The notes beneath the pieces are model-generated. The model was not told the origin of the DNA. It did no database searches and worked only from the letters and a program-made list of their open reading frames with translations. 64,000 nucleotides of DNA from Gammaproteobacteria bacterium (GTDB lineage Bacteria; Pseudomonadota; Gammaproteobacteria; JAPPPA01). The stretch is from contig JAUHZK010000006.1 of the NCBI GenBank assembly GCA_030425645.1, positions 124,001-188,000 on the forward strand. The letters are read 5' to 3'. The translations under genes and the position numbers were made by a program. Shown in pieces: positions 15,422-34,323 of this stretch (the first letter of the stretch is position 1; each line of letters starts with the position of its first letter).

Positions 15422-15706
15422 ATGAGCAATGCCGAACAAGCCTGGTTTTTATATATGGTGCGCACAGCCAAGGGCGTGCTTTATACCGGCGTTACCTTGG
15501 ATGTGGCGCGCCGTTTTGCCGAGCACCAAAGCAGCGGCCCTAAAGCCGCCAAGGCGCTAAAAGGCAAAGGCCCGTTAAGTTTGGTTTATGTTGAACAGCT
15601 AGAGTCTAAGGTCGCCGCTTATCAACGCGAATACGCGGTGAAAAAGCTCAGTAAAGCGCAGAAAGAACGGCTGATTGTTGAGGCGTCTGATTGTCGAGTC
15701 GTTTAA
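15422..15706 (+). CDS. GIY-YIG domain protein, UPF0213/YhbQ type
   Basis: A stand-alone GIY-YIG nuclease-fold domain of 94 residues. The signature appears as Y11 in FLYMV, Y21-T-G, R30 and E34 in RRFAEHQ, with the later KGPLSLVYVEQ strand typical of this family. Members of this small group are thought to act on DNA, but their role is unsettled. The stop codon overlaps the stop of the convergent downstream gene through a shared TTAA at 15703-15706. Confidence 0.9.
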   Translation: MSNAEQAWFLYMVRTAKGVLYTGVTLDVARRFAEHQSSGPKAAKALKGKGPLSLVYVEQLESKVAAYQREYAVKKLSKAQKERLIVEASDCRVV

Positions 15707-16632
15707 GGCTGAGCTTGATAGTCCGCCGGTTTGTCCGAACCCTTCTTAAACGGCGCCGCTAGCTGGCCTAGGTAGTTTTTGGGGTAATCTGGATTTAGCA
15801 AACCAATCTCGCCCACGCCACGGTTATCGCCGTTATTCTCTGGGTGGAAATAGGTGCCAAAGATGCGGTCGTACACAATCAGGTTGTTGCCGTAGTTATT
15901 GTCTGATTCTTCGATCTTCTTCGAATGATGCCAGCGGTGTAGTTCGACCACGTTAAATAACCAATACAAAGGCCCCAGTTTTAAATCTACATTGCAGTGC
16001 TGGGCAAAGCCGCAAACGGCGGTGGCGATCAAATACAAACCCAGCACTTCGCCATGCACGCCCATGAGTGTGGGAACCAGTAGCTCGGTAAAGGTAAACC
16101 AAGCTTTATCGACCGGGTGTTGGCGAGTGGCATTCCAAAACCACAAGCGGGTAGCTGAATGGTGCACAGCATGAAAGCGCCATAGAAATGGCACTTCATG
16201 CGCCAAGCGGTGGCCCCAGTAACGGCCAGCGTCGCCGGCCAGCATCAGTAGTACTACCTGCGCCGCAATCGGCCAGTCTGATGGCCATAAGCTACCGCCG
16301 GCTAACGAGGCAAGCCAAGCCGTGCCGCCCGCTAGAAACGCGATATAAAGCGGACTCAGAATCTTCGGCAGAATGCCGTAAGCAACGGTGCCGCTAATTA
16401 GGTCGTTACTCAGGTCGCCGTCCAACTGGTTCCAGTGTGGGCGATAGGGCATCAGCCGTTCAAATACAAAATACAGTAGCCCGGCAGCAGCTACGCCGGC
16501 ATAAGTCGCTACGGCAAAGTGCACGTTGTTCTGAATGGCCAGCCAAGCGGCTGCGGGCAGGCCCACAATCAGCGCCGGGAAATAAGCCCGCTGTAGAAAC
16601 CAATATAGTTTGCTGTTTTTGTTTAGTTGCAT
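15703..16632 (-). CDS. Fatty acid hydroxylase/sterol desaturase family protein
   Basis: A 309-residue membrane di-iron oxygenase-family protein with several hydrophobic helices. The His boxes are complete: H141xxxH145, H154xxH157H158 and H232xxH235H236, plus QH at 211-212. The family hydroxylates or desaturates lipids and sterols using O2 and electrons from a partner reductase, which is not in the neighbourhood. It is a paralogue of the protein at 26110-27060; both contain HRWHHSK-IEESD. It may be transcribed with the upstream DMT/YcaQ pair on the same strand. Confidence 0.9.
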   Translation of the reverse strand: MQLNKNSKLYWFLQRAYFPALIVGLPAAAWLAIQNNVHFAVATYAGVAAAGLLYFVFERLMPYRPHWNQLDGDLSNDLISGTVAYGILPKILSPLYIAFLAGGTAWLASLAGGSLWPSDWPIAAQVVLLMLAGDAGRYWGHRLAHEVPFLWRFHAVHHSATRLWFWNATRQHPVDKAWFTFTELLVPTLMGVHGEVLGLYLIATAVCGFAQHCNVDLKLGPLYWLFNVVELHRWHHSKKIEESDNNYGNNLIVYDRIFGTYFHPENNGDNRGVGEIGLLNPDYPKNYLGQLAAPFKKGSDKPADYQAQP

Positions 16633-22707: not shown

Positions 22708-24171
22708 TTAGGCGCTTACAACGTCGTAGTCGTTGAAGTTGGGCTTTCTGGTTTTACGTTTGTAGGTAAAGGTAAAACCGGGCCACATATTTACAATTTT
22801 GCCGGTGCTGTCGATATACCAGCTGCTGCAGCCGCTGGCCCATACCGAGGTTTTGAGTTTTTTCTGCACGGCGTTGTCCCAAGCGGTTTGGGCGTCTTTA
22901 CGGGCGTCGATGTATTTCCAACCATTGGCTTTCATGGCCAGCACGGTTTGCTTGATGTGCTGCATTTGGCACTCGAGCATAAACACGGCTGAGTTGTGCG
23001 AGAGGTTGGTGTTAGGGCCGTAGATAAGGTGCAGGTTAGGGAATCCGCTGAGGTTGATACCCTTGTATGCGCTCACGCCGTTTTTCCAAGCTTCGTTTAG
23101 GTCGATGCCATTGAGGCCTTTGAAATCGACTGGCGAAAGGAAGTCGGTGGCTTTAAAGCCGGTGCCGAAGATGATGGTGTCGACCTCTACACGGCGGCCG
23201 TCTTTGGTGATGATGGCGTTTTCTTCTACGCGCTCAATACCGGTGTCGATAATGTCGACATGCTCTTGTGCCAGTGCAGGGAAGTAGTCGTTAGACAGTA
23301 GAATGCGTTTGCAGCCAATGTTCCACTGAGGCGTCACTTTGCGACGTTTCTCTTTGTCTTTAATGGCCGAGTTAATGGCGTATTTTCCGAGCAGGCCAAA
23401 GGCTTTTAGGGCGAACTGGAAGGTGGTGAAACCCAGTGCACGGACTTCGTTTAGCCAGTAAATCCAGTAGCGATAAGCGCGGTCGTAAACCGGCAAGTTT
23501 TTAAACAGCCATTGTTCGAACTTTAGGAATTTACGGTCGGCTTTCGGGGTTACCCAAGCGCCTGAGCGTTGGAATAGGAATAGCTCTTTGGCTTGTGGCA
23601 CAACCTTAGGCACAAACTGGATGGCGCTAGCGCCGGTGCCGATGACAGCAACGCGTTCGCCTTCTAGGTTGTGGTCGTGGTTCCACTGCGCCGAGTGGAA
23701 GGTGGTGCCTTTAAAGTTTTCTAGGCCGGGTAGGTCTGGCGTAGCCGGTTGGCTAAGCGGGCCATTGGCCATAACCACGGTGCGCGCGATGACCACGCCG
23801 CCGCTGGTTTGCAATGTCCAGAGGCCGCTGGTTTCGTCGAACTCGGCTGACTGCAGCTCAGTATTGAAACGAATATTTTTGCGCACGTCGTAGTTGTCGG
23901 CGCAGTCGTTTAGGTAGCCGCGAATCTCTGGCTGCTCTGCAAACTTACGCGTCCAGTCGTGCTTAGGCGCAAACGAGAACGAGTACAGATGCGATTGCAC
24001 GTCGCAAGCCGCGCCAGGGTAGTGGTTGTCGCGCCAAGTGCCGCCCACGCCGTCGGCGCGTTCGATTACTACAAAGTCTTCTTCGCCGGCTTTTTTGAGG
24101 TTAATGGCCATGCCTAGGCCGCCAAAACCGGTGCCAATAATGGCGACGTTAAAAATACTGTTCTGGGTCAT
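22708..24171 (-). CDS. Flavin-dependent Baeyer-Villiger-type monooxygenase 1
   Basis: A 487-residue NADPH/FAD monooxygenase that would insert oxygen next to a ketone or oxidise a heteroatom. The first Rossmann motif is G13-T-G15-F-G-G18. The BVMO fingerprint F153-x-G155-xxx-H159-xxx-W163 is intact, and the NADPH motif GTGASAIQ follows. The C-terminal HNSAVFMLECQMQHI region is typical of the family. The substrate cannot be told from sequence; ketones from sterol, cyclic or alkyl degradation are likely. It is monocistronic, divergent from an SRPBCC protein. Confidence 0.93.
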   Translation of the reverse strand: MTQNSIFNVAIIGTGFGGLGMAINLKKAGEEDFVVIERADGVGGTWRDNHYPGAACDVQSHLYSFSFAPKHDWTRKFAEQPEIRGYLNDCADNYDVRKNIRFNTELQSAEFDETSGLWTLQTSGGVVIARTVVMANGPLSQPATPDLPGLENFKGTTFHSAQWNHDHNLEGERVAVIGTGASAIQFVPKVVPQAKELFLFQRSGAWVTPKADRKFLKFEQWLFKNLPVYDRAYRYWIYWLNEVRALGFTTFQFALKAFGLLGKYAINSAIKDKEKRRKVTPQWNIGCKRILLSNDYFPALAQEHVDIIDTGIERVEENAIITKDGRRVEVDTIIFGTGFKATDFLSPVDFKGLNGIDLNEAWKNGVSAYKGINLSGFPNLHLIYGPNTNLSHNSAVFMLECQMQHIKQTVLAMKANGWKYIDARKDAQTAWDNAVQKKLKTSVWASGCSSWYIDSTGKIVNMWPGFTFTYKRKTRKPNFNDYDVVSA

Positions 24172-24858: not shown

Positions 24859-24888
24859 AAAACGCCGCTTATATAGCGGCGTTTTTTG
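24859..24888. terminator. Bidirectional terminator
   Basis: AAAACGCCGCT and AGCGGCGTTTTTT form a stem with a TATAT loop. It overlaps the stop of the acyltransferase pseudogene and ends the SRPBCC gene. Confidence 0.9.
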
Positions 24889-25976
24889 TTGCGGTGGCAG
24901 TGATGGTGTCGACAGATCTGTTTGGTGATAGTGGGAAGCGGTATTTGAGTTTTTCAAAGCGGCTTTCTATCAATATTAATGACAGATATGCCGCCATGAT
25001 GGAGCCGCCAAAGTAGCTCAGTTGTACCCACAGCGGAGAGGTGGATATGTATTCGTTGTTGGTGACAGCTAACAATGCGCCCCGAACGGGTACGTGCACC
25101 AGATACAGCGCGTAACTAATGCTGCCGAGAAAACGCAGTGGCTTGCTACTAAGTGCGGTGTTGAGTGTGGCCGACCAGTCGTCAATTAATGCGACAAGAA
25201 TGCAGCCGTACAGCAGGTTAAAGCCAAGTAGATAGAAACCACGATGCAAGTCGGGTGCCTGGGTGGCGCTGTTAAGGCCGTCGATAAGCGCCAGTGCGAT
25301 TAGTCCAATGCCAACAATAAATGGCTTGGGTAAGCGCCATGGGCTGGTTGAATTTCTTGAGTAATGCCAATAGAAGGCAATGGCAACGCCAATGCAAAGG
25401 GCGTCCATTCGGTATATGAGTAGCCAATGAAAGACATCTGCGGTGCGGAAATATACTGCCAGTGGTATCAACGCTAAGATCACTGCGAGGGCAACGGCAA
25501 GGTGCCGCCTTGCAAAACATCAGTAGCAACGGCATTAACAGATAAAACTGTTCTTCAATGGCGATGGACCAGCTGTGATGGAACCAGAAAATAAACTGGT
25601 CGTCAGCGCCGTGAAAGCCAGGGGCCAGGTAGTGGTGGGTGTACTGCAAGAAGAACGGCGCGCTTAGTAGGCCGTCGGTATGACGCCAGTCGCCGGTTGC
25701 TACATAGTTTACGACCACCACAAAGCTGCAAAACGCCAGCAGTAGGTAGTAAATCGGCCAGATGCGTAATGCTCGCCGAATCATAAAATTGCGTAGTGAA
25801 AAGTTATCACGCACCAGCGCCTGCAGCACTAGCCGTGTAATAAGAAAGCCAGAGAGGACGAAGAATAGATCTACAAACGTCCACATCCAGCTAAATAATG
25901 CGCCGTAGTAAGCGTGAAACCAAACTACGCCAAATGCTGCAATGCCTCGCAGCCCGTCAAGTTGCGTATCGCGCAC
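24869..25976 (-). pseudogene. Acyltransferase-3 (OafA type) membrane protein, one frameshift
   Basis: Two overlapping frames together encode a complete acyltransferase family 3 protein, which would O-acylate a surface glycan or lipid. Frame one (from the GTG at 25976) has the N-terminal DGLRGIAAFGVVWFHAY motif and runs to LLMPLLLMF. Frame two resumes with RRHLAVALAVILALIPL and runs to 24869. Removing one base from the A run at 25514-25517 (T on the coding strand) restores about 368 codons, the usual family length. No other damage is seen, so this is either a recent mutation or phase-variable tract, or a sequencing error. The unusual start and lack of a clear ribosome-binding site are noted. 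Confidence 0.85.
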
Positions 25977-26109: not shown

Positions 26110-27060
26110 TTAGAGGTCTGAGAGTTCAGCCCGGTTAGCGTTAGCCAGTTGGCTGAGGTAGTTGGCTTCGTTTTCGTAGAAGTCGCTGGGTTTGTCGATC
26201 GCCCGCTTGGCAAAAGCGGCCTTTAGCTGGCCCCAGAAGCTAGTGGGGTAGTCCGGGTTAAAAAGACCGAGCACGCCGACGTGGCGGTCTTTGGGTAGAA
26301 ACCATGTGCCGAACAGTAAGTCCCACACAATCACGTTGTTACCAAAGTTGGTGTCGGACTCTTCAATGAGTTTGGAATGATGCCAGCGGTGCAATTCTGG
26401 GCCACTGAGTAGGTAATTTAGGAAGCCGAGTTTGACGTCGACATTGCCGTGCTGGAAAAGGCCGTGGGTTTGGATAAAGACTACGGCAAGCGCGACGAGG
26501 GTGACGTCTGCGCCTAGCGCCATAATTACAATTACATCAATCGCGGCGAGTGCTAGCCAGTCGACAAAGTGAAAGCGGGCGGCGTTAAAGAAGTAGAGGC
26601 GCTTGGGGCTGTGGTGAATGGCGTGGAAACGCCATAAAAAGCCGAATTTGTGTGAGCTGCGGTGAAACCAGTATTCGAAAAAGTCCAAAGCCAGCAGGGC
26701 TAGAACAAGCTGTAACAGTGGGTGCCATTCGGTCGGCCAAATATTCAGGCTGGCGTTGCTAAAGCCGAGGCTAGCAAGCGCAGCAATCAAACCGAGTTTA
26801 AAGCCAACGTTAGCGGCTTCGCGCAAGGCGAGGTTAATGCCGATATAGGTGGCGTCGGTCATTAGGTCTTGTTGCGGTGTGTTCCATTTGGCCCGATAGG
26901 GCATCACGCGCTCCATCACGCCCACCAAAACAAAGGCGGCGGTGAGCGGCGCCATAATGCTGTACAGCGGTAGTTGATGGATATAGAGCATAAGGTAGGC
27001 GCTATACACGCTGGCGGCCATAGTGGCGGGGTATAGGCTGTACTGAATGAGGCGATGCAT
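26110..27060 (-). CDS. Fatty acid hydroxylase/sterol desaturase family protein 2
   Basis: A 316-residue integral membrane di-iron family protein. The His boxes are H133xxxH137, H146xxH149H150 and H224xxH227H228, with QH at 203-204. It is a clear paralogue of the protein at 15703-16632, with the same HRWHHSK-IEESD and FGNN segments. It follows the AraC-family gene on the same strand after 22 bases, so the regulator and enzyme probably form one transcript. The position beside BVMO and PF10118 genes suggests lipid or sterol oxidation, with substrate unknown. Confidence 0.9.
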   Translation of the reverse strand: MHRLIQYSLYPATMAASVYSAYLMLYIHQLPLYSIMAPLTAAFVLVGVMERVMPYRAKWNTPQQDLMTDATYIGINLALREAANVGFKLGLIAALASLGFSNASLNIWPTEWHPLLQLVLALLALDFFEYWFHRSSHKFGFLWRFHAIHHSPKRLYFFNAARFHFVDWLALAAIDVIVIMALGADVTLVALAVVFIQTHGLFQHGNVDVKLGFLNYLLSGPELHRWHHSKLIEESDTNFGNNVIVWDLLFGTWFLPKDRHVGVLGLFNPDYPTSFWGQLKAAFAKRAIDKPSDFYENEANYLSQLANANRAELSDL

Positions 27061-27082: not shown

Positions 27083-28102
27083 TTATGGTTTTTTGCGGTG
27101 GTTCTGGCGGTATGCGGTAGGGGTTTCGCCTAGCCATTTTTTAAACGCAGCGGTAAAGCTGCGGCGCTCTTCAAAGCCGAGCTTAAAGCCAATGCTGTCT
27201 ACGTCTAGGTCGCTGTGTTTAAGCATGTCGCTGGCAACGGCTTTGCGGGTTTGGGCAAGCACTTCGGAAAAACGATAGCCTTCGGCTTTCAGTTCGCGTT
27301 GTAGCTTGCGTGGATGAATATGCAAGGCCTTAGCAACGCCTTCGATGCCTTCGCCGAAAAGGTGTAGCTCTTTCTTTAGTAGGGATTGGATTTGGTTTTT
27401 AAATCCGTTACTTAGGCTGCTATCTAATAGTTTTACGCGAATACTTTGTTCGGCTTGTTCGTGTACTGGCGGCAGGTTGCCCGGCAATGGTTGGTCGAGC
27501 ACATCGGGGTTAAATTGGATTTGATTGCGATGGTTATTAAAGCTGACTTTGCAGCCAAAATAGCGCTCGTAATTGCTGATTTTGTCGCGCGGAGTGTGGG
27601 CGAAACTGACCTGGGTGAGTGACGAAACATGCGGCGCAATCAGCTGACTAAAGCGCTTAACCACGGCGGCAATCATTTCTGCGAAAACGGGCATTTCGGC
27701 CTCGCTGCCGTCGGGGTGGCAAAAACTGAGCGTGGTCATCGCATGTTCGTCGAACTGGCTGCCGTCGATCTCGATGGCGGTATGAATCAGCGGTGGAATC
27801 CAATCAATCAGCTTGGCGGCGTCGCGTAGATTGCTGGAGCTAACCACAAAGGCCGACATTTCTGGAATGCCGTCAAAGTTAAAGACTTCACCAAAGGCAA
27901 AGGAAAAATGCTGTAAATGGCACTTGCGTTCTAGTGCTTCAAGAAGGGCATTAATGTCTTCTACAGACAGTTGTTTAAAGGCGTTGTTGTCGTTGGAAAC
28001 GGCAATGCCAAGCTCTGACACCACGGCATTAAAGTCACCGCCGCCTAACGCTGCGGCGCGGGTTAATAGACTTAATCCTGTGAGGTCAATTGTGGTTGTC
28101 AT
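27083..28102 (-). CDS. AraC-family transcriptional regulator
   Basis: A 339-residue regulator with an N-terminal ligand-sensing domain of the arabinose-binding-like type found in OruR/ArgR-like proteins, and a C-terminal double helix-turn-helix (about residues 235-335). The second HTH ends in ERRSFTAAFKKWLGETPTAYR-like sequence, the AraC signature. Start at 28102 gives the usual family length; an upstream in-frame ATG at 28171 would add 23 unconserved residues. It is divergent from the PF10118-BVMO-PF10118 operon and probably controls it. Confidence 0.9.
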   Translation of the reverse strand: MTTTIDLTGLSLLTRAAALGGGDFNAVVSELGIAVSNDNNAFKQLSVEDINALLEALERKCHLQHFSFAFGEVFNFDGIPEMSAFVVSSSNLRDAAKLIDWIPPLIHTAIEIDGSQFDEHAMTTLSFCHPDGSEAEMPVFAEMIAAVVKRFSQLIAPHVSSLTQVSFAHTPRDKISNYERYFGCKVSFNNHRNQIQFNPDVLDQPLPGNLPPVHEQAEQSIRVKLLDSSLSNGFKNQIQSLLKKELHLFGEGIEGVAKALHIHPRKLQRELKAEGYRFSEVLAQTRKAVASDMLKHSDLDVDSIGFKLGFEERRSFTAAFKKWLGETPTAYRQNHRKKP

Positions 28103-28137
28103 TGTCGCAATATAATCCCTTTTTGTCGTTTCTGCAC

Positions 28138-28185
28138 CTCGTTTGTATACGAGTGTATGCATAAGATGCATTCATCGAATACGAG
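28138..28185. promoter_or_regulatory. Operator-like repeats between araC-type gene and PF10118 operon
   Basis: CTCGT-N6-ACGAG (28138-28153) and TGCAT-AAG-ATGCA (28158-28170) are inverted repeats. ATACGAG is directly repeated at 28147 and 28179, 32 bases apart, close to three helical turns. AraC-family regulators bind such direct repeats. The 248-base divergent region holds no other clear signal. Confidence 0.5.
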
Positions 28186-28350
28186 ATCTACGCACGATTG
28201 TCCTGAGATCGCCTAACTTCGTTAAAACCGTGCTCATTCGGTCATTTATGACTTATAAACTCCCTCATTGCGCGCGGTTTTGCCTTGTTATCCACCCTCA
28301 GTCCTGCTCGTGCGAAGACCTCTTAACGCAAATGACGTTTGGAGACGGCA

Positions 28351-29232
28351 ATGGCACATACAGAATATAAAGAAACCCCAGAAGTACGTATGGGTTTGGA
28401 CTTTGGTTTTAAGGGCGACGATATCCCCAAATACTGGATGGCCGGCGACCCGTTTCGCACCCGTATGATGGATGCAGTGCAAGCCACGTTCCCAGACGGT
28501 GAGCGTTACTTTATTACCACCGTAATGGCGTTTAAAGACCAGATTGAAGATCCTGAATTAAAGGCTGAGGTAAAAGATTTTGCCATGCAGGAAGGGCAGC
28601 ACGGTCGCGTACATACCGAGTTCAATGAGCGCCTGCAGCGCCAAGGTTTAGACATTAAGCGTGTAACGGGCATGATTATGAAATTGAATAATCGTCGCCT
28701 GAAGTACTTTTCAGCACAGTACAACATTGCACTGACCGCTGCCTTTGAGCACCTAACTGCCATGATGGCGGAGCTGTTCTTTGCTGAAAAACACGTTTTA
28801 GCTGGTGCCGACAAGCGCGTAAAGGCCATGTTTGCTTGGCATGCCATTGAAGAGATGGAACACAAAGCGGTGGCTTATGACGTGATGCAGAAAGTCGCCA
28901 AAGTTGGTTACTTGCGCCGTACTACGGCGATGACCCACGGCTTGCTGTCGTTCACCCTAAATACCGTCATCATGCCTTGGTTTATGTTGAAGTCTGACGG
29001 CATTGGTCGCCGTGAGCGTTTAGCGCTGTATGCCCGCGGTTTAGCGTGGATGTTTGGTCCCCGCAAAGGTGTTTTCACCCGCATGGTTCCGGCCTTGGCC
29101 AAGTACTACAAGCCGGGTTTTCACCCTAACCAATTGCCATCGGTACATAACTACGACGCTTGGAAAGACACCTACGACGAGTCGCAAGACCCAATGGCTG
29201 CCTCAGAGGCTATGTACGCTGCCGCGCACTAG
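28351..29232 (+). CDS. PF10118-type protein 1, candidate di-iron oxygenase
   Basis: A 293-residue helical protein of the family named predicted metal-dependent hydrolase (PF10118). The acidic and His residues fit a ferritin-like four-helix di-iron site: E51, E81xxH84, E133 and E168xxH171, as in soluble di-iron oxygenases. The start at 28351 has GGAG six bases upstream and matches the N terminus of the second copy; the ATG at 28339 is less likely. It is followed after 18 bases by a BVMO gene and then by a paralogue with the same six residues. The function as an oxygenase is inference. Confidence 0.85.
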   Translation: MAHTEYKETPEVRMGLDFGFKGDDIPKYWMAGDPFRTRMMDAVQATFPDGERYFITTVMAFKDQIEDPELKAEVKDFAMQEGQHGRVHTEFNERLQRQGLDIKRVTGMIMKLNNRRLKYFSAQYNIALTAAFEHLTAMMAELFFAEKHVLAGADKRVKAMFAWHAIEEMEHKAVAYDVMQKVAKVGYLRRTTAMTHGLLSFTLNTVIMPWFMLKSDGIGRRERLALYARGLAWMFGPRKGVFTRMVPALAKYYKPGFHPNQLPSVHNYDAWKDTYDESQDPMAASEAMYAAAH

Positions 29233-29250
29233 CGCAGCTTGGAGTAGGCG

Positions 29251-30747
29251 ATGAATACGCTGCATTATGACTTTGTGATTCTGGGTGCGGGCTTGTCGGG
29301 CATTGGCGCGGCTTGCCGGCTGAACAGGGCGATGCCCGGTAAGTCTTATACCGTGTTGGAGCGTCGCCAAGCCATTGGCGGTACTTGGGATTTATTTAAA
29401 TACCCCGGTATTCGTTCCGACTCAGATATGACCACCTTCGGTTACAGCTTTAAGCCTTGGAAAAGCCCAAAGTTATTAGCTGACGGCCCGTCTATTAAGG
29501 CTTATGTGACCGAAGCGGCTGAAGAACACAAGGTAATCCCCAATATTCGTTTTAAAACGGAAATTGAGCAGGTGGAGTGGTGCTCTAAAGCCGGGCGATG
29601 GACAGTCACCAGTAAAGATATCGAGAGCGGGGAGTGCACACGTATTAGCGCGCAGTTCATCGTGAACGGCACGGGTTACTACAACCACAAGAAAGGCTAT
29701 ACGCCGGAATTTGCTGGTCGCGATAACTTTGAAGGCCAAATTGTGCACCCGCAGTTTTGGCCGGAAAATTTGGAGTACCAAGGCAAAAACGTAGTGGTGA
29801 TTGGTAGTGGTGCAACTGCCGTGACCTTAGTACCGAATATGGCCAATAAGGGCGCCCAAGTCACCATGCTGCAACGTTCGCCGACTTACGTGATTTCGGT
29901 GCCGGAAGTGGACCCTGTTTACGTGTGGATGAGCAAAGTCATGCCGGTAAGCTGGGTGTTTGCTATTTCGCGTGTGCGCAATGTTTTGCTGGGCCGGGCG
30001 CTGTATAACGCAGCTGGCCGTTGGCCAAAGTTGGTGCGCCGTTTCCTTCTGGGCGGTGTTAAGTCCCGCCTAAAAGGCAAGGCCGATATGGCTGACTTTG
30101 AGCCGCGTTATAACCCTTGGGAACAGCGTTTATGCGCGGTGCCGAACGGCGACCTGTTCAAGGCGATTGTTGACGGCAAAGCCTCTGTAGTGACCGACGG
30201 CATTGAAACTTTCGATAAGACTGGCATCCACTTGAAGTCGGGTAAGCATTTAGCCGCTGACATCATCATTACCGCCACGGGTTTAGAAATGCTGGCTTTC
30301 GGTGGTGCCGAGGTGAAGGTAGATGGCCAGCCGGTCGCCGTTAGCGAACGTATGCTGTACAAAGGCATGATGTTTGAAGGCGTGCCTAACTTTTTGCATA
30401 TCAACGGTTATTTCAACGCATCGTGGACGTTGAAAGCCGACATTGTGACCGATCACTTTTTACGGGTGGTTAAGCATATGGATGAAACCGGGGCCGACGT
30501 GGTGACGGCTAATGCAGGTGCCGCAGCGCGTAATAAGCCGCAAAAAGATAATGAACCCGGCTATGTGCAGCGAGGTGCGCATACTCGCCCGATGGAAGGC
30601 GAGAAAAAGCCTTGGGCGGCGTTGGGGGATTATTTAAGTGATGCGGTGCAACTAAAGCTTGGGCGGGTAACCCACTCAGCATTGGAATATCGCCGCACCA
30701 GCGGCGGAACAGCTTTGGTAGAGGATGCTGCTACCGAAGCCGTGTAA
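29251..30747 (+). CDS. Flavin-dependent Baeyer-Villiger-type monooxygenase 2
   Basis: A 498-residue FAD/NADPH monooxygenase with GAGLSGIG near the N terminus, the BVMO fingerprint F160-E-G162-xxx-H166-xxx-W170 and a second Rossmann motif GSGATA. It contains the YPGIRSDSDM segment seen in BVMOs acting on aliphatic and aromatic ketones. GGAG lies before the ATG. It sits between two PF10118 genes, so its substrate is probably made or used by those proteins. It is a different subtype from BVMO 1 at 22708-24171, with limited similarity outside the motifs. Confidence 0.93.
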   Translation: MNTLHYDFVILGAGLSGIGAACRLNRAMPGKSYTVLERRQAIGGTWDLFKYPGIRSDSDMTTFGYSFKPWKSPKLLADGPSIKAYVTEAAEEHKVIPNIRFKTEIEQVEWCSKAGRWTVTSKDIESGECTRISAQFIVNGTGYYNHKKGYTPEFAGRDNFEGQIVHPQFWPENLEYQGKNVVVIGSGATAVTLVPNMANKGAQVTMLQRSPTYVISVPEVDPVYVWMSKVMPVSWVFAISRVRNVLLGRALYNAAGRWPKLVRRFLLGGVKSRLKGKADMADFEPRYNPWEQRLCAVPNGDLFKAIVDGKASVVTDGIETFDKTGIHLKSGKHLAADIIITATGLEMLAFGGAEVKVDGQPVAVSERMLYKGMMFEGVPNFLHINGYFNASWTLKADIVTDHFLRVVKHMDETGADVVTANAGAAARNKPQKDNEPGYVQRGAHTRPMEGEKKPWAALGDYLSDAVQLKLGRVTHSALEYRRTSGGTALVEDAATEAV

Positions 30748-30795
30748 AGGTTGTCGTAGTTGCTGGCAAGTGACTACACTGCTGATCTAGTTTGG

Positions 30796-30813
30796 TTTGG
30801 GCCGGGGCCCAAA
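30796..30813 (+). promoter_or_regulatory. Perfect stem-loop between BVMO 2 and PF10118 gene 2
   Basis: TTTGGGCC-GG-GGCCCAAA is a perfect dyad in the 92-base intergenic gap, ending about 15 bases before the GAGGAG ribosome-binding site. There is no T-tract, so it is more likely an mRNA-stability or processing element than a terminator. Confidence 0.45.
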
Positions 30814-30839
30814 TTAGGCAATACAACGAGGAGAATTCC

Positions 30840-31721
30840 ATGACACAAGTGGAACATAAAGAGCCTATTCAAGTTCGCGCGAATTTGGATTTCGGCTTTG
30901 AGTCTGACGATATCCCGCGTTATTGGTTAGCGGGTGATCCGTTCCGTAGTCGGATGGTGGACGCTGTGCAAGCTACGTTCCCAGATGGTGAGCGCTATTT
31001 TATTGCCTCTGTAAACGCTTTTCGAAAAGACATTACCGACCCTGCATTGCTAGAAGAAGTGAAAGACTTTTCCCAGCAAGAAGGGCATCACGGTCGTGTG
31101 CACACCGATTACAACGACCGCCTGCAACGCCAAGGCGTTAATGTTCGTGCCTTTACCAAGCACACACAAAAGCTCACCAATTATCGACTTAAACACTATT
31201 CGGCGAGTTATAACGTCGCCTTGACTGCAGCCTTAGAGCACTTCACCGCCATGCTGGCCGAGCTGTTCTTCGCCCGTAAGCAAGTGATGGCCGGTGCAGA
31301 CGAACGTGTAAGAGCGATGCTGGCTTGGCATGCGATTGAAGAAATGGAACACAAGGCCGTGGCGTTTGATGTGATGCAGAAAATTGCCAAAGTAGGCTAC
31401 TTCAAACGTTGTTTGGCGATGACGCACGCTACGCTGTCTTTCATGTTGTTTGTAATGATTGCGCCGTGGTTTATGTTGAAGATGGATGGTCTGAGCTTTG
31501 GCGGCAGGCTAAAAGCTTACGGCAAAGGCATGGCTTGGATGTTTGGGCCGCGCAACGGCATCTTCTTGCGGATGGTCGGCATGATTGCGCATTACTACCG
31601 ACCGGGGTTTCACCCGACGCATTTGCCGTCGGTACACAATTACCAAGCCTGGCTTGACGGCTACGGCGAAGAACAAGATCCAATGGCAGCATCACGAGCA
31701 ATGCATGCGGCAGCGATTTAA
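30840..31721 (+). CDS. PF10118-type protein 2, candidate di-iron oxygenase
   Basis: A 293-residue paralogue of the protein at 28351-29232, aligned without gaps over most of its length. E51, E81xxH84, E133 and E168xxH171 are all kept. They differ mainly at the N terminus, in residues 99-115 and in the helical segment after residue 185. GAGGAG lies six bases before the ATG. Keeping two highly similar copies around a BVMO suggests either two substrates or a hetero-oligomer. A terminator follows directly. Confidence 0.85.
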   Translation: MTQVEHKEPIQVRANLDFGFESDDIPRYWLAGDPFRSRMVDAVQATFPDGERYFIASVNAFRKDITDPALLEEVKDFSQQEGHHGRVHTDYNDRLQRQGVNVRAFTKHTQKLTNYRLKHYSASYNVALTAALEHFTAMLAELFFARKQVMAGADERVRAMLAWHAIEEMEHKAVAFDVMQKIAKVGYFKRCLAMTHATLSFMLFVMIAPWFMLKMDGLSFGGRLKAYGKGMAWMFGPRNGIFLRMVGMIAHYYRPGFHPTHLPSVHNYQAWLDGYGEEQDPMAASRAMHAAAI

Positions 31722-31767: not shown

Positions 31768-34155
31768 CTAAGGGCAATCAGCGACTGGTCCGTCAATTAC
31801 AAACTCGTTTGATATGCCTTCATACGGGGTCAGTATGCTGGCTTGGTTAGCGACCCCTTCAAAGCGAATGCGGAATGTGCCGGGCTGGGTATTGCGTGGA
31901 ATACGCCAGAGAATTTCAGCTATATGGTTTGTCGATGGCCCTAACTGCGGTTGCGGATTATTGGGCCGCCAGTTGTAGGTGGTTTCTGGGTCGGCATCGC
32001 GGTAGACCACTTGCCACTCGCCGCTTTCATTCTGGCGCTCGACGAATAAGAAGCTGCTGTCGGTTTTCAAATCACTATTGGGGCTAGAAGACTGGAAGTC
32101 GACTCGAACAGTTTCGCCCGGCGCGTAGCTAGCGCTAGGTTGTAGCGTTACGTTGCCAAAGGCGCCGCTGTCGGTACCTTGAGTGGGTAGCAGTTGGAAT
32201 AGTTGTGGCGACGTCACAGGTGGCGTGGGGCCGGGGTCGCTGGCGTTGCCATTAATCATATCTAATGCTAAGCGGCGGGTTTCTTGTTGCACAGCCGCTA
32301 AGGACCATGGGCCGAATTGATTCGAGGCGGCCTCGTACATCTGTAGCGCGTATTCTTCGCGGGTGGTGAGATAGCTGACGTAGTCGTTGGCGAGGCCATT
32401 AATCACCACGTAGTCGACGCCATCATTCTTTAGAACGTCTAATAGCGTGGCGCGAATGCGGCGGCCGGCCATGGTGGTGATTTCCCAAGGTAGACCGACA
32501 ATGGCGAGGTTGCCAATCCGGAATAACTGGAACGGCACAACCGTGGCCGAGGCGTTAACGGGCGGCCCAAAGATAAACAGGATGGGTTTCTCGGCTTGGC
32601 ACTCAAGGTTTAAGCCGGGCAGGGTGCCGAGGTTGCAACCAACGGCGGCCGAAAATAGGTTGGTTGGCACATTGCCATTGGTTAGGGCGCGGAATTCGTC
32701 AGCCGCCAGTTGCGCTGCATCTGGGTCGGCGCAGCTAATGCCTGATTCGGTAAATTGACCTTGCTCACCCGGTTGCGCTCCGTGGCCAGCGGCGGGGAAG
32801 GAAACGCCCATGGCGGCGTTGCAGGTGCGCTTGGGGTTGGCGTCCAGTTCTGGTGGATGAATAAGCGAACTCAGCACCACCGGGTCGGTAACTTCGACTT
32901 GGTCCATTTGTACATAGCCAAAGCGATAGTCGACGGGGCCGGTCACAGTTTCATTCGCCTGCGCGTGTAGGGTTAAGGCTTTTAGTAGTTGCTTCTGGCC
33001 ATTGGCAACGGTAACAGCATTAGGCTCGTTAGGCGGCAAAAAGGCGTCTTGCTCGGCGCGTTTTTCGTCATTGTCGAACCACATTTGGGTGAAGGCATCG
33101 CCTTCATCAGCTTGCATAAAGCTGGCCACAAAGCCGGGATGGTTTTCGGCTTCAAAACGCTCAAATTGATAGGCCGCATAGCCTTTGTTGTCGCCACTAA
33201 TCGGTACAGCGCCAAGGCCGTAGTCGGAAATCGCATCCGATGTGGGGTGTACTCCAAACCAGTTCATGCTGCCAACTTGGTTGCCGTCGGCTTGTAAGAA
33301 CTTCAGTAGGGTCATTAAGCGAGGAGTGTCGACGTCGTTGCCGTCTTCATCTTGGTATTGCTGACGTTCTGATTCTGGGTTTTGTTGGTAGGCGGGGATG
33401 GCGCGGTTTTTATTGGCGCCGGTCAACTCACCTTGGTTAATTAAGATGCTGCCGTTTTGTGGATTGGCGACGAGATTTTCGTGCGCTTGTTTGATGGAGT
33501 TAAAGAGGCCGTCAACGGTGATATCAAACGTTTGCGTGTCATGCCCAAAGCGTAGTGCGTTAAAGGCGGTGAAATGGGCTTGGCCGCCGGGTGTTGAATG
33601 CGTGTGGGTGGCATTCATCATGATGTTTTCTTCGTTGTACAGACTGGCCAAGGCTGGGTCTGCCGCCACTCGATCTAAAACCGCTTTGCGTACCGACTCG
33701 AACAACATGCCGGTATCGGTAATCGCCAACACAACGCGTTTGTTATTACAGGGCGAGTGCACTACAAAACTACGCGCGTATTGGCGCATATAAATACCGG
33801 CGGAGTAGTTCTCGGGGCTTTCGTTGCCCATATGAATTTTGCCGCCAGCTGGGCCGGTGATATCGGTTTTGGCAGCTGCGAAGATGAAATTGCTATTACC
33901 ATCGCAGGCCGGCACTGACTGTACGCCAGCAGTAGCTGCCGCGGCAGGGATGGTGCTTGCTGAGGAGGCTTGTAAACCTTCGCCGTATTCCAACCAAGGG
34001 CTTTCGGCCACACATTTGCCTTCTGCAGATAATGGGCTGTTGGCTTGGCTGTTTCCGCCAGTGTTGTTCGCGCTGGGACTGTTATTGCCACAGGCGGTTA
34101 CAAGCAATAGGGCGGCACCAATGCCAGCGATTGGTGTTAGTCGATTCAGGATCAT
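31768..34155 (-). CDS. Neutral ceramidase-type lipoprotein
   Basis: A 795-residue exported lipoprotein (lipobox VTAC, Cys22) of the neutral/alkaline ceramidase family, which cleaves ceramide to sphingosine and fatty acid. Zinc-site residues are visible in ATHTHSTPGG (H184, H186), and the family segments WFGVHPTS, ISGDNKGYAAY and FMQADEGDA are present. The C-terminal 150 residues form the immunoglobulin-like domain. Start at 34155 has GGAG nine bases upstream; the longer frame to 34320 lacks homology. It is divergent from a DUF4212-symporter pair. Bacterial members may act on other N-acyl lipids. Confidence 0.9.
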   Translation of the reverse strand: MILNRLTPIAGIGAALLLVTACGNNSPSANNTGGNSQANSPLSAEGKCVAESPWLEYGEGLQASSASTIPAAAATAGVQSVPACDGNSNFIFAAAKTDITGPAGGKIHMGNESPENYSAGIYMRQYARSFVVHSPCNNKRVVLAITDTGMLFESVRKAVLDRVAADPALASLYNEENIMMNATHTHSTPGGQAHFTAFNALRFGHDTQTFDITVDGLFNSIKQAHENLVANPQNGSILINQGELTGANKNRAIPAYQQNPESERQQYQDEDGNDVDTPRLMTLLKFLQADGNQVGSMNWFGVHPTSDAISDYGLGAVPISGDNKGYAAYQFERFEAENHPGFVASFMQADEGDAFTQMWFDNDEKRAEQDAFLPPNEPNAVTVANGQKQLLKALTLHAQANETVTGPVDYRFGYVQMDQVEVTDPVVLSSLIHPPELDANPKRTCNAAMGVSFPAAGHGAQPGEQGQFTESGISCADPDAAQLAADEFRALTNGNVPTNLFSAAVGCNLGTLPGLNLECQAEKPILFIFGPPVNASATVVPFQLFRIGNLAIVGLPWEITTMAGRRIRATLLDVLKNDGVDYVVINGLANDYVSYLTTREEYALQMYEAASNQFGPWSLAAVQQETRRLALDMINGNASDPGPTPPVTSPQLFQLLPTQGTDSGAFGNVTLQPSASYAPGETVRVDFQSSSPNSDLKTDSSFLFVERQNESGEWQVVYRDADPETTYNWRPNNPQPQLGPSTNHIAEILWRIPRNTQPGTFRIRFEGVANQASILTPYEGISNEFVIDGPVADCP

Positions 34156-34278
34156 ATTGTCTCGCTCCGTATCCAGCAGATCGGCTAGATATGCGGCTGA
34201 TAGGTTTATGTTATGCCGTTGTTTGGGCGATCTTAGCAAATCGCACCGGCTACTGCTTTTGCTGCAGAGCAGGCTAGG

Positions 34279-34284
34279 TATACT
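34279..34284 (+). promoter_or_regulatory. Possible -10 box for the DUF4212-symporter operon
   Basis: TATACT lies 39 bases before the DUF4212 ATG. A poor CTTTTG -35 sits 17 bases upstream. Confidence 0.35.
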
Positions 34285-34323
34285 GCTGCAAACTTCGGCG
34301 CTGATCGAAGCAGGAGACAATAA

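What the first reader, a model, noticed from the sequence alone, without database searches (positions are those of the whole stretch)
28351..31721. Twin PF10118 proteins carry a four-helix di-iron ligand pattern and flank a BVMO
Seen: both 293-residue proteins keep E51, E81xxH84, E133 and E168xxH171, exactly spaced for helices 1 to 4 of a ferritin-like di-iron site. Established: soluble di-iron oxygenases use this Glu4His2 set. Inference: the family name metal-dependent hydrolase is wrong here, and the pair hydroxylates a substrate whose ketone is then oxidised by the BVMO between them. Two near-identical copies around one flavin enzyme is unusual.
Basis: partly seen in the sequence, partly recalled or inferred. 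Interest (0 to 1): 0.78.

Follow-up and report, generated by a model that had tools for sequence, protein, structure and literature searches.

The report
Misnamed hydrolase is likely di-iron oxygenase
Two proteins that databases label as hydrolases are very probably iron-containing oxygen-activating enzymes that sit beside a ketone-oxidising enzyme, so a large bacterial protein family looks misnamed and may supply the missing first step of an oil- or lipid-degrading pathway.

Summary
The two PF10118 genes (28351-29232 and 30840-31721) and the EthA-type BVMO between them (29251-30747) are real, and all six residues are at the stated positions. The copies are 66.5% identical, not near-identical. 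Across 164 PF10118 rows (20-100% identity to copy A) exactly nine columns never vary, all Glu or His: E51, E81, H84, H88, E133, H164, E167, E168, H171. AlphaFold2 gives an all-helical model (pLDDT 95.7). Its best PDB neighbours are all ferritin-like dimetal proteins: AurF and CmlI, ribonucleotide reductase R2, methane monooxygenase hydroxylase. The pattern is closer to the seven-ligand Glu4His3 set of AurF/CmlI (H164xxxE168xxH171) than to plain Glu4His2. The name 'metal-dependent hydrolase' is therefore probably wrong for the whole family. The BVMO link is general: 23 of 105 PF10118 genes lie within 3 kb of a BVMO-type gene, against about 1% expected. Recurrent operons combine PF10118, BVMO, SDR and an esterase; three Actinomycetota plasmids add a flavin/2Fe-2S reductase right behind PF10118. 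Twin copies are a genus-level tandem duplication. Metal content, O2 activation, substrate and reaction are untested; hydroxylation upstream of the BVMO is inference, and the window locus lacks SDR, esterase and reductase genes nearby.

The parts
28351..29232 (+). PF10118 protein A, 293 aa, predicted ferritin-like dimetal oxygenase; candidate ligands E51, E81, H84, E133, H164, E168, H171 (plus invariant H88, E167)
29251..30747 (+). EthA/AlmA-type Baeyer-Villiger monooxygenase, 498 aa, 18 bp after A; fingerprint FEGQIVHPQFWP
30840..31721 (+). PF10118 protein B, 293 aa, paralogue of A (66.5% identical), all ligands kept
27083..28171 (-). Divergent AraC-type regulator (Arabinose_bd + HTH_18), the most frequent neighbour of PF10118 genes
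28172..28350 (.). Divergent intergenic region between the AraC-type gene and A; likely promoter/operator, not tested
30745..30842 (+). BVMO-B intergenic segment with a strong hairpin (z -2.8) and a Shine-Dalgarno-like GAGGAG before B
22708..24171 (-). Second BVMO-type flavoprotein in the neighbourhood (membership in the same pathway not shown)

Best explanation
PF10118 proteins, including A and B, are ferritin-like dimetal (most likely di-iron) O2-activating enzymes of the AurF/CmlI type. They have a Glu4His3 ligand set: E51 on helix 1, E81/H84 on helix 2, E133 on helix 3, H164/E168/H171 on helix 4. In BVMO-linked loci they most likely hydroxylate an unactivated carbon of a hydrophobic substrate (alkyl chain, fatty or terpenoid lipid). 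An alcohol dehydrogenase (SDR) then makes the ketone, the EthA-type BVMO makes an ester, and an alpha/beta hydrolase cleaves it: subterminal oxidation. Electrons come from a flavin/2Fe-2S reductase, encoded beside PF10118 in Actinomycetota and presumably in trans here. Shown by computation: invariance, fold class, gene neighbourhood. Inferred: iron, O2 activation, hydroxylation, substrate, order of steps. My estimates: dimetal ferritin-like oxygenase/oxidase about 0.88; C-H hydroxylation upstream of the BVMO about 0.5.
For: Nine columns invariant in all 164 rows are all Glu/His. AF2 model pLDDT 95.7 and all-helical, with the ligands falling in helices 47-59, 68-97, 122-145 and 155-170 plus H171. 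Structural neighbours are CmlI Z 13.6, AurF Z 13.3, RNR R2 Z 13.6 and sMMO hydroxylase Z 13.0 over 223-238 residues; all 50 listed rows are dimetal ferritin-like proteins. The Pfam AurF model hits four PF10118 genes at E 1.7e-5 to 6e-4 (places as), and one PF10118 protein at 0.01. hhalign puts Q80E81xxH84, E133 and H164xxE167E168xxH171 in register with AurF-like DExxH, E and HxxDExxH. 23 of 105 PF10118 genes in 16 of 50 genomes have a BVMO-type gene within 3 kb, about 1% expected. Operons: PF10118-ABH-BVMO-SDR (L113, L118), BVMO-SDR-PF10118-SDR (L048, Oleiphilaceae), AraC-PF10118-BVMO-SDR (L049, L050), PF10118-SDR-ABH-BVMO (L182, L184). Rhodococcus: PF10118-[FAD/NAD/2Fe-2S reductase]-BVMO-SDR; Dietzia and R. 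fascians: reductase directly behind PF10118. Own genome: alpha/beta hydrolase fused to PF10118 beside a BVMO. A and BVMO under purifying selection against the congener (dN/dS about 0.02-0.03).
Against: No metal, structure or activity data. Foldseek E-values are all above 0.1 and Z near 13 is not rare for helical bundles; ligand distances could not be measured. The hhalign score against AurF-like proteins is not significant (E 0.23). About 78% of PF10118 genes have no listed BVMO within 3 kb; many stand alone beside an AraC-type gene. The window locus has no SDR, esterase or reductase adjacent, so the pathway is incomplete locally.
Confidence: 0.6

Rival explanations
1. Dimetal oxygenase of the same fold but with a different reaction: N-oxygenation (like AurF/CmlI), desaturation, aldehyde deformylation or halogenation (like CylC/NocO).
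For: The ligand pattern is nearest AurF/CmlI; QExxH plus HxxEExxH resembles the QExxH and HxxDExxH motifs of diiron halogenases (PMC12101540). Aldehyde-deformylating oxygenases and stearoyl-ACP desaturase are among the Foldseek hits.
Against: Neighbours (BVMO, SDR, esterase, AraC, acyl-CoA genes) point to ketone/ester chemistry, not amines or secondary-metabolite halogenation. E133 and E168 are strictly kept, whereas halogenases are predicted to lose one Glu ligand.
Confidence: 0.25
2. Dimetal oxidase or peroxide/iron-handling partner that protects or supports the flavin monooxygenase rather than acting on its substrate.
For: BVMOs leak H2O2 (general knowledge); ferritin-like proteins often handle iron or peroxide; many PF10118 genes are not in BVMO operons.
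Against: The predicted relatives are catalytic oxygenases/oxidases of about 300 aa, not ferritin/rubrerythrin; a dedicated reductase follows PF10118 in three Actinomycetota plasmids; fusion to an alpha/beta hydrolase.
Confidence: 0.1
3. A true metal-dependent hydrolase, as the family name says.
For: Family name and database annotation 'metal-dependent hydrolase'; Glu/His-rich sites also occur in hydrolases.
Against: All-helical model whose best PDB matches are all dimetal O2-activating proteins; no hydrolase family other than PF10118 itself matched at E up to 10; no experimental basis for the name found in the held literature.
Confidence: 0.05

Closest known systems
AurF/CmlI arylamine N-oxygenases (PF11583)
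   Same: Helical ferritin-like fold (Z 13.3-13.6); Glu4His3 pattern with ExxH on helix 2 and HxxxExxH on helix 4; register-matched in hhalign; Pfam AurF model weakly hits PF10118 genes
   Different: About 10% identity; Gln80 and Glu167 where AurF has Asp135 and Asp226; extra invariant H88; neighbours are BVMO/SDR/esterase, not arylamine pathways
CylC/NocO diiron radical halogenases
   Same: QExxH on helix 2 and HxxxExxH on helix 4 (motifs from PMC12101540)
   Different: Asp instead of E167 in halogenases; PF10118 keeps all four Glu; no halogenase-type context; no sequence comparison was run here
Soluble di-iron monooxygenases (methane monooxygenase hydroxylase, phenol hydroxylase)
   Same: Same fold class (Z 13.0) and Glu/His dimetal site; proposed C-H hydroxylation
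   Different: Those are multi-subunit with a coupling protein and Glu4His2; PF10118 is a lone chain of about 293 aa with no Pfam match to them
EthA/AlmA-type BVMO subterminal oxidation (Thalassolituus TOL_0709)
   Same: The same kind of BVMO; the published pathway (alcohol dehydrogenase, BVMO, esterase) has the gene types seen beside PF10118
   Different: In that study no specific subterminal hydroxylase was identified (PMC6304351); PF10118 is a candidate for that gap, not tested
mymA/virS locus of mycobacteria (from memory, not tested)
   Same: Divergent AraC-type regulator beside an EthA-like BVMO
   Different: No PF10118 gene recalled there; comparison not run

Membership tests
PF10118 (named Predicted metal-dependent hydrolase) | Profile match above gathering score over full length | tested here: met
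   A 256.9 bits, B 256.0 bits, cut-off 33.2
Ferritin-like dimetal carboxylate oxygenases/oxidases | Four-helix core of the ferritin-like fold | tested here: met
   AF2 pLDDT 95.7; all 50 listed VIA-align rows are RNR R2, AurF/CmlI, sMMO or R2lox, Z 12.3-13.6. Predicted model only; Foldseek E above 0.1
Ferritin-like dimetal carboxylate oxygenases/oxidases | E, ExxH, E, ExxH on successive core helices, conserved | tested here: met
   E51, E81xxH84, E133, E168xxH171 invariant in 164 rows; helix positions from the model
Ferritin-like dimetal carboxylate oxygenases/oxidases | Two bound metals at bonding distance; O2 activation | not testable with these tools
   No model coordinates available to the script box; needs purified protein
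AurF N-oxygenases (PF11583) | Match to the family profile above its cut-off | tested here: not met
   A and B do not match PF11583 at E up to 10; one relative at 15.5 bits against cut-off 29.6; four PF10118 genes hit at E 1.7e-5 to 6e-4, below cut-off
AurF N-oxygenases (PF11583) | Glu4His3 ligand pattern incl. HxxDExxH on helix 4 | tested here: met
   H164xxE167E168xxH171 invariant, with Glu for Asp; works like, not a member
AurF N-oxygenases (PF11583) | Amine N-oxygenation | not testable with these tools
   Needs biochemistry
Soluble di-iron monooxygenases (bacterial multicomponent) | Alpha-subunit family match and partner subunits/coupling protein nearby | tested here: not met
   Only PF10118 matched at E up to 10; none of the neighbours scanned is such a subunit
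CylC-type diiron halogenases | QExxH and HxxDExxH plus an unoccupied coordination site | tested here: inconclusive
   QExxH kept in 159 of 164 rows; Asp replaced by E167; halide site not testable
Type I Baeyer-Villiger monooxygenases | FxGxxxHxxxW(P/D) fingerprint and two Rossmann motifs | tested here: met
   FEGQIVHPQFWP at 160, GAGLSG at 12, GSGATA at 185; PDB relatives are BVMOs
Metal-dependent hydrolase (as function) | Hydrolase fold or match to a family with proven hydrolase activity | tested here: not met
   No other family match and fold matches are dimetal O2 enzymes

The most novel reading that the evidence does not exclude
PF10118 is an unrecognised, widespread single-chain Glu4His3 di-iron hydroxylase family that acts on unactivated C-H bonds and supplies the missing subterminal hydroxylase in BVMO-dependent alkane or lipid degradation.
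Probability: 0.4. Interest if true: 0.85.

Novelty: new variant of a known kind. Interest (0 to 1): 0.62.

Why it matters
PF10118 was found in 39 of 249 sampled genomes of the window's phylum and on Actinomycetota plasmids, and is annotated 'metal-dependent hydrolase'. One published network study listed a PF10118 member among protease candidates (PMC8960859). A correct assignment would rename many proteins, add a small single-chain oxygenase family with an N-oxygenase-like site but no arylamine context, and offer a candidate for the subterminal hydroxylase reported as not identified in Thalassolituus on long-chain alkanes (PMC6304351). A single protein purification would decide the metal question.

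Tried and rejected
PDB sequence search with A and with the A1 profile: no relative, only chance hits. hhalign against four AurF-like proteins: matching register but not significant, so not used alone. Literature searches for PF10118, COG3687, UCP07580, Metal_hydrol and 'metal-dependent hydrolase' with alkane terms found no functional work; the held library is open-access only. Reductase next to PF10118 in the Pseudomonadota loci: nothing convincing among the flanks held. A genome survey centred on Actinomycetota was not possible, so the reductase link rests on three plasmids. The idea that the twin copies form a dedicated heteromer was set aside: both keep all ligands, they are sister paralogues, and tandem PF10118 copies occur in many loci without a BVMO.

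Full report
OBSERVATION. The window holds, on the + strand, PF10118 gene A (28351-29232), a BVMO gene (29251-30747) and PF10118 gene B (30840-31721), divergent from an AraC-type regulator (27083-28171). A and B are each 293 aa and both carry E51, E81, H84, E133, E168 and H171. They share 66.5% of residues and 66% of nucleotides, so 'near-identical' is wrong. Pfam assigns both only to PF10118. The middle gene has the type I BVMO fingerprint (FEGQIVHPQFWP) and is closest in the PDB to steroid, cyclohexanone and phenylacetone monooxygenases.

FAMILY TEST. An alignment of 32 members at 21-95% identity to A kept all six residues. I then aligned 163 distinct PF10118 proteins with A, taken from profile searches of the window's class and phylum, pattern-based genome contigs and low-scoring outliers. 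Exactly nine columns never vary: E51, E81, H84, H88, E133, H164, E167, E168, H171. All are Glu or His, although Glu plus His make up only 10% of A. 91 of the 163 came from a scan that required the helix-4 motif; the other 72 did not, and they show the same invariance. More distant Actinomycetota members also keep QExxHxxxH and HxxEExxH.

FOLD. AlphaFold2 with 74 sequences gave pLDDT 95.7 and pTM 0.92, all helical; E51, E81/H84/H88, E133 and H164/E168 fall on four successive helices and H171 at the end of the last. Foldseek found only weak PDB matches (E above 0.1), mostly di-iron proteins: stearoyl-ACP desaturase, aldehyde-deformylating oxygenase, R2lox, CmlI, MMO hydroxylase. VIA-align ranks RNR R2 (Z 13.6), CmlI (13.6), AurF (13.3) and MMO hydroxylase (13.0) at the top over 223-238 residues, and all 50 listed entries are dimetal ferritin-like proteins. 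Z about 13 is not exceptional for helical bundles, so the weight lies in the combination of fold class and invariant ligand pattern.

WHICH DI-IRON TYPE. H164 and E167 are as invariant as the six named residues. E51 / E81xxH84 / E133 / H164xxxE168xxH171 is the seven-ligand 3-His/4-carboxylate pattern described for AurF, unlike the usual 2-His/4-carboxylate hydroxylases; the same text gives QExxH and HxxDExxH for CylC-type diiron halogenases (PMC12101540). hhalign of the PF10118 profile with AurF-like proteins aligns Q80E81xxH84 with DExxH, E133 with the helix-3 Glu and HxxEExxH with HxxDExxH, but the score is not significant. The AurF-like protein used is close to CmlI and AurF. The Pfam AurF model reaches four PF10118 genes at E 1.7e-5 to 6e-4. 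So PF10118 works like an AurF-type dimetal enzyme without passing the AurF membership cut-off.

NEIGHBOURHOOD. All four PF10118 genes of this genome lie beside BVMO genes: A and B here, and two on another contig where an SDR-PF10118-MerR set faces a BVMO, an alpha/beta-hydrolase::PF10118 fusion (629 aa) and a second alpha/beta hydrolase. In 50 genomes with PF10118, 23 of 105 genes have an FMO/BVMO gene within 3 kb, in 16 genomes of 11 families; uniform placement would give about 1% (the FMO list was truncated, so the count is a lower bound). Recurrent operons are PF10118-ABH-BVMO-SDR (L113, L118), BVMO-SDR-PF10118-SDR in an Oleiphilaceae (L048), AraC-PF10118-BVMO-SDR (L049, L050), and PF10118-SDR-ABH-BVMO (L182, L184). 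In Rhodococcus NBC_00297 the order is PF10118, a reductase with FAD, NAD and 2Fe-2S domains, BVMO, SDR. In Dietzia an ABH::SDR fusion precedes PF10118 and the reductase follows; in R. fascians the reductase gene overlaps the end of PF10118. A 2Fe-2S reductase directly behind the gene is what an oxygenase needs and a hydrolase does not. On Acinetobacter plasmid pAR3 the gene lies downstream of a ferredoxin, P450 and FAD-oxidoreductase set, with a transposase between. Many PF10118 genes, however, stand alone beside an AraC-type gene.

TWIN COPIES. A and B are sister paralogues (98/90 support) nested among single-copy relatives. The congeneric genome G112 has the same A-BVMO-B order. A and the BVMO are 95% identical to their counterparts there with dN/dS about 0.02-0.03, whereas B is 77% identical over 176 residues: B evolves faster but keeps the ligands. 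The arrangement is therefore a tandem duplication older than the split of the two species, not a mechanistic requirement. Tandem copies occur elsewhere too.

MECHANISM AND CONFIDENCE. Best reading: O2-activating dimetal enzyme (about 0.88), most likely hydroxylating a hydrophobic substrate whose ketone, after SDR oxidation, is taken by the BVMO (about 0.5). The published subterminal pathway in Thalassolituus has an alcohol dehydrogenase, EthA-type BVMO and esterase but no identified subterminal hydroxylase (PMC6304351); PF10118 is a candidate. The window locus has no SDR, esterase or reductase next to it, so partners would act in trans; the genome has eight Fer2 matches elsewhere. Substrate is open: ceramidase homologues beside both loci hint at lipids rather than alkanes.

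LITERATURE. No functional study of PF10118 was found in the open-access library. One network study listed a PF10118 member among protease candidates (PMC8960859).

Noticed in passing
24869-25976 (-): An acyltransferase-3-like gene seems split into two overlapping frames (234 and 204 aa), as after a frameshift or sequencing error.
   Followed up: no
31768-34320 (-) and L005:15493-17928 (-): A neutral ceramidase homologue (PF04734/PF17048) lies beside the PF10118 locus here, and a protein that looks like its homologue lies beside the second locus, hinting at a lipid substrate.
   Followed up: partly
L005:6328-8217 (-): Alpha/beta hydrolase fused to PF10118 in the same genome and in the congener, directly after a BVMO gene.
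   Followed up: partly
L199:893-2674: Dietzia plasmid: alpha/beta hydrolase fused to an SDR, followed by PF10118 and a PDR-type reductase.
   Followed up: partly
30780-30820 (+): Strong hairpin between BVMO and B without a T run (z -2.8); may tune expression of B.
   Followed up: partly
15703-16632 (-) and 26110-27060 (-): Two membrane fatty-acid-hydroxylase (OlsE-like) genes; the second lies next to the AraC-type gene, also in the congener.
   Followed up: no
22708-24171 (-): A second, different BVMO-type gene about 4 kb from the cluster.
   Followed up: no
30840-31721 versus L180:2-538: B diverges much faster between congeners (77% identity) than A (95%), with the ligands unchanged.
   Followed up: partly
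L162 and L166: AurF-like hits in two other genomes also have PDR-type reductase-like ORFs in or near the match, parallel to PF10118 in Actinomycetota.
   Followed up: no
plasmids collection (H5-H54): PF10118 genes occur on 57 Acinetobacter plasmid records, many with the same match score, so probably near-identical copies.
   Followed up: no
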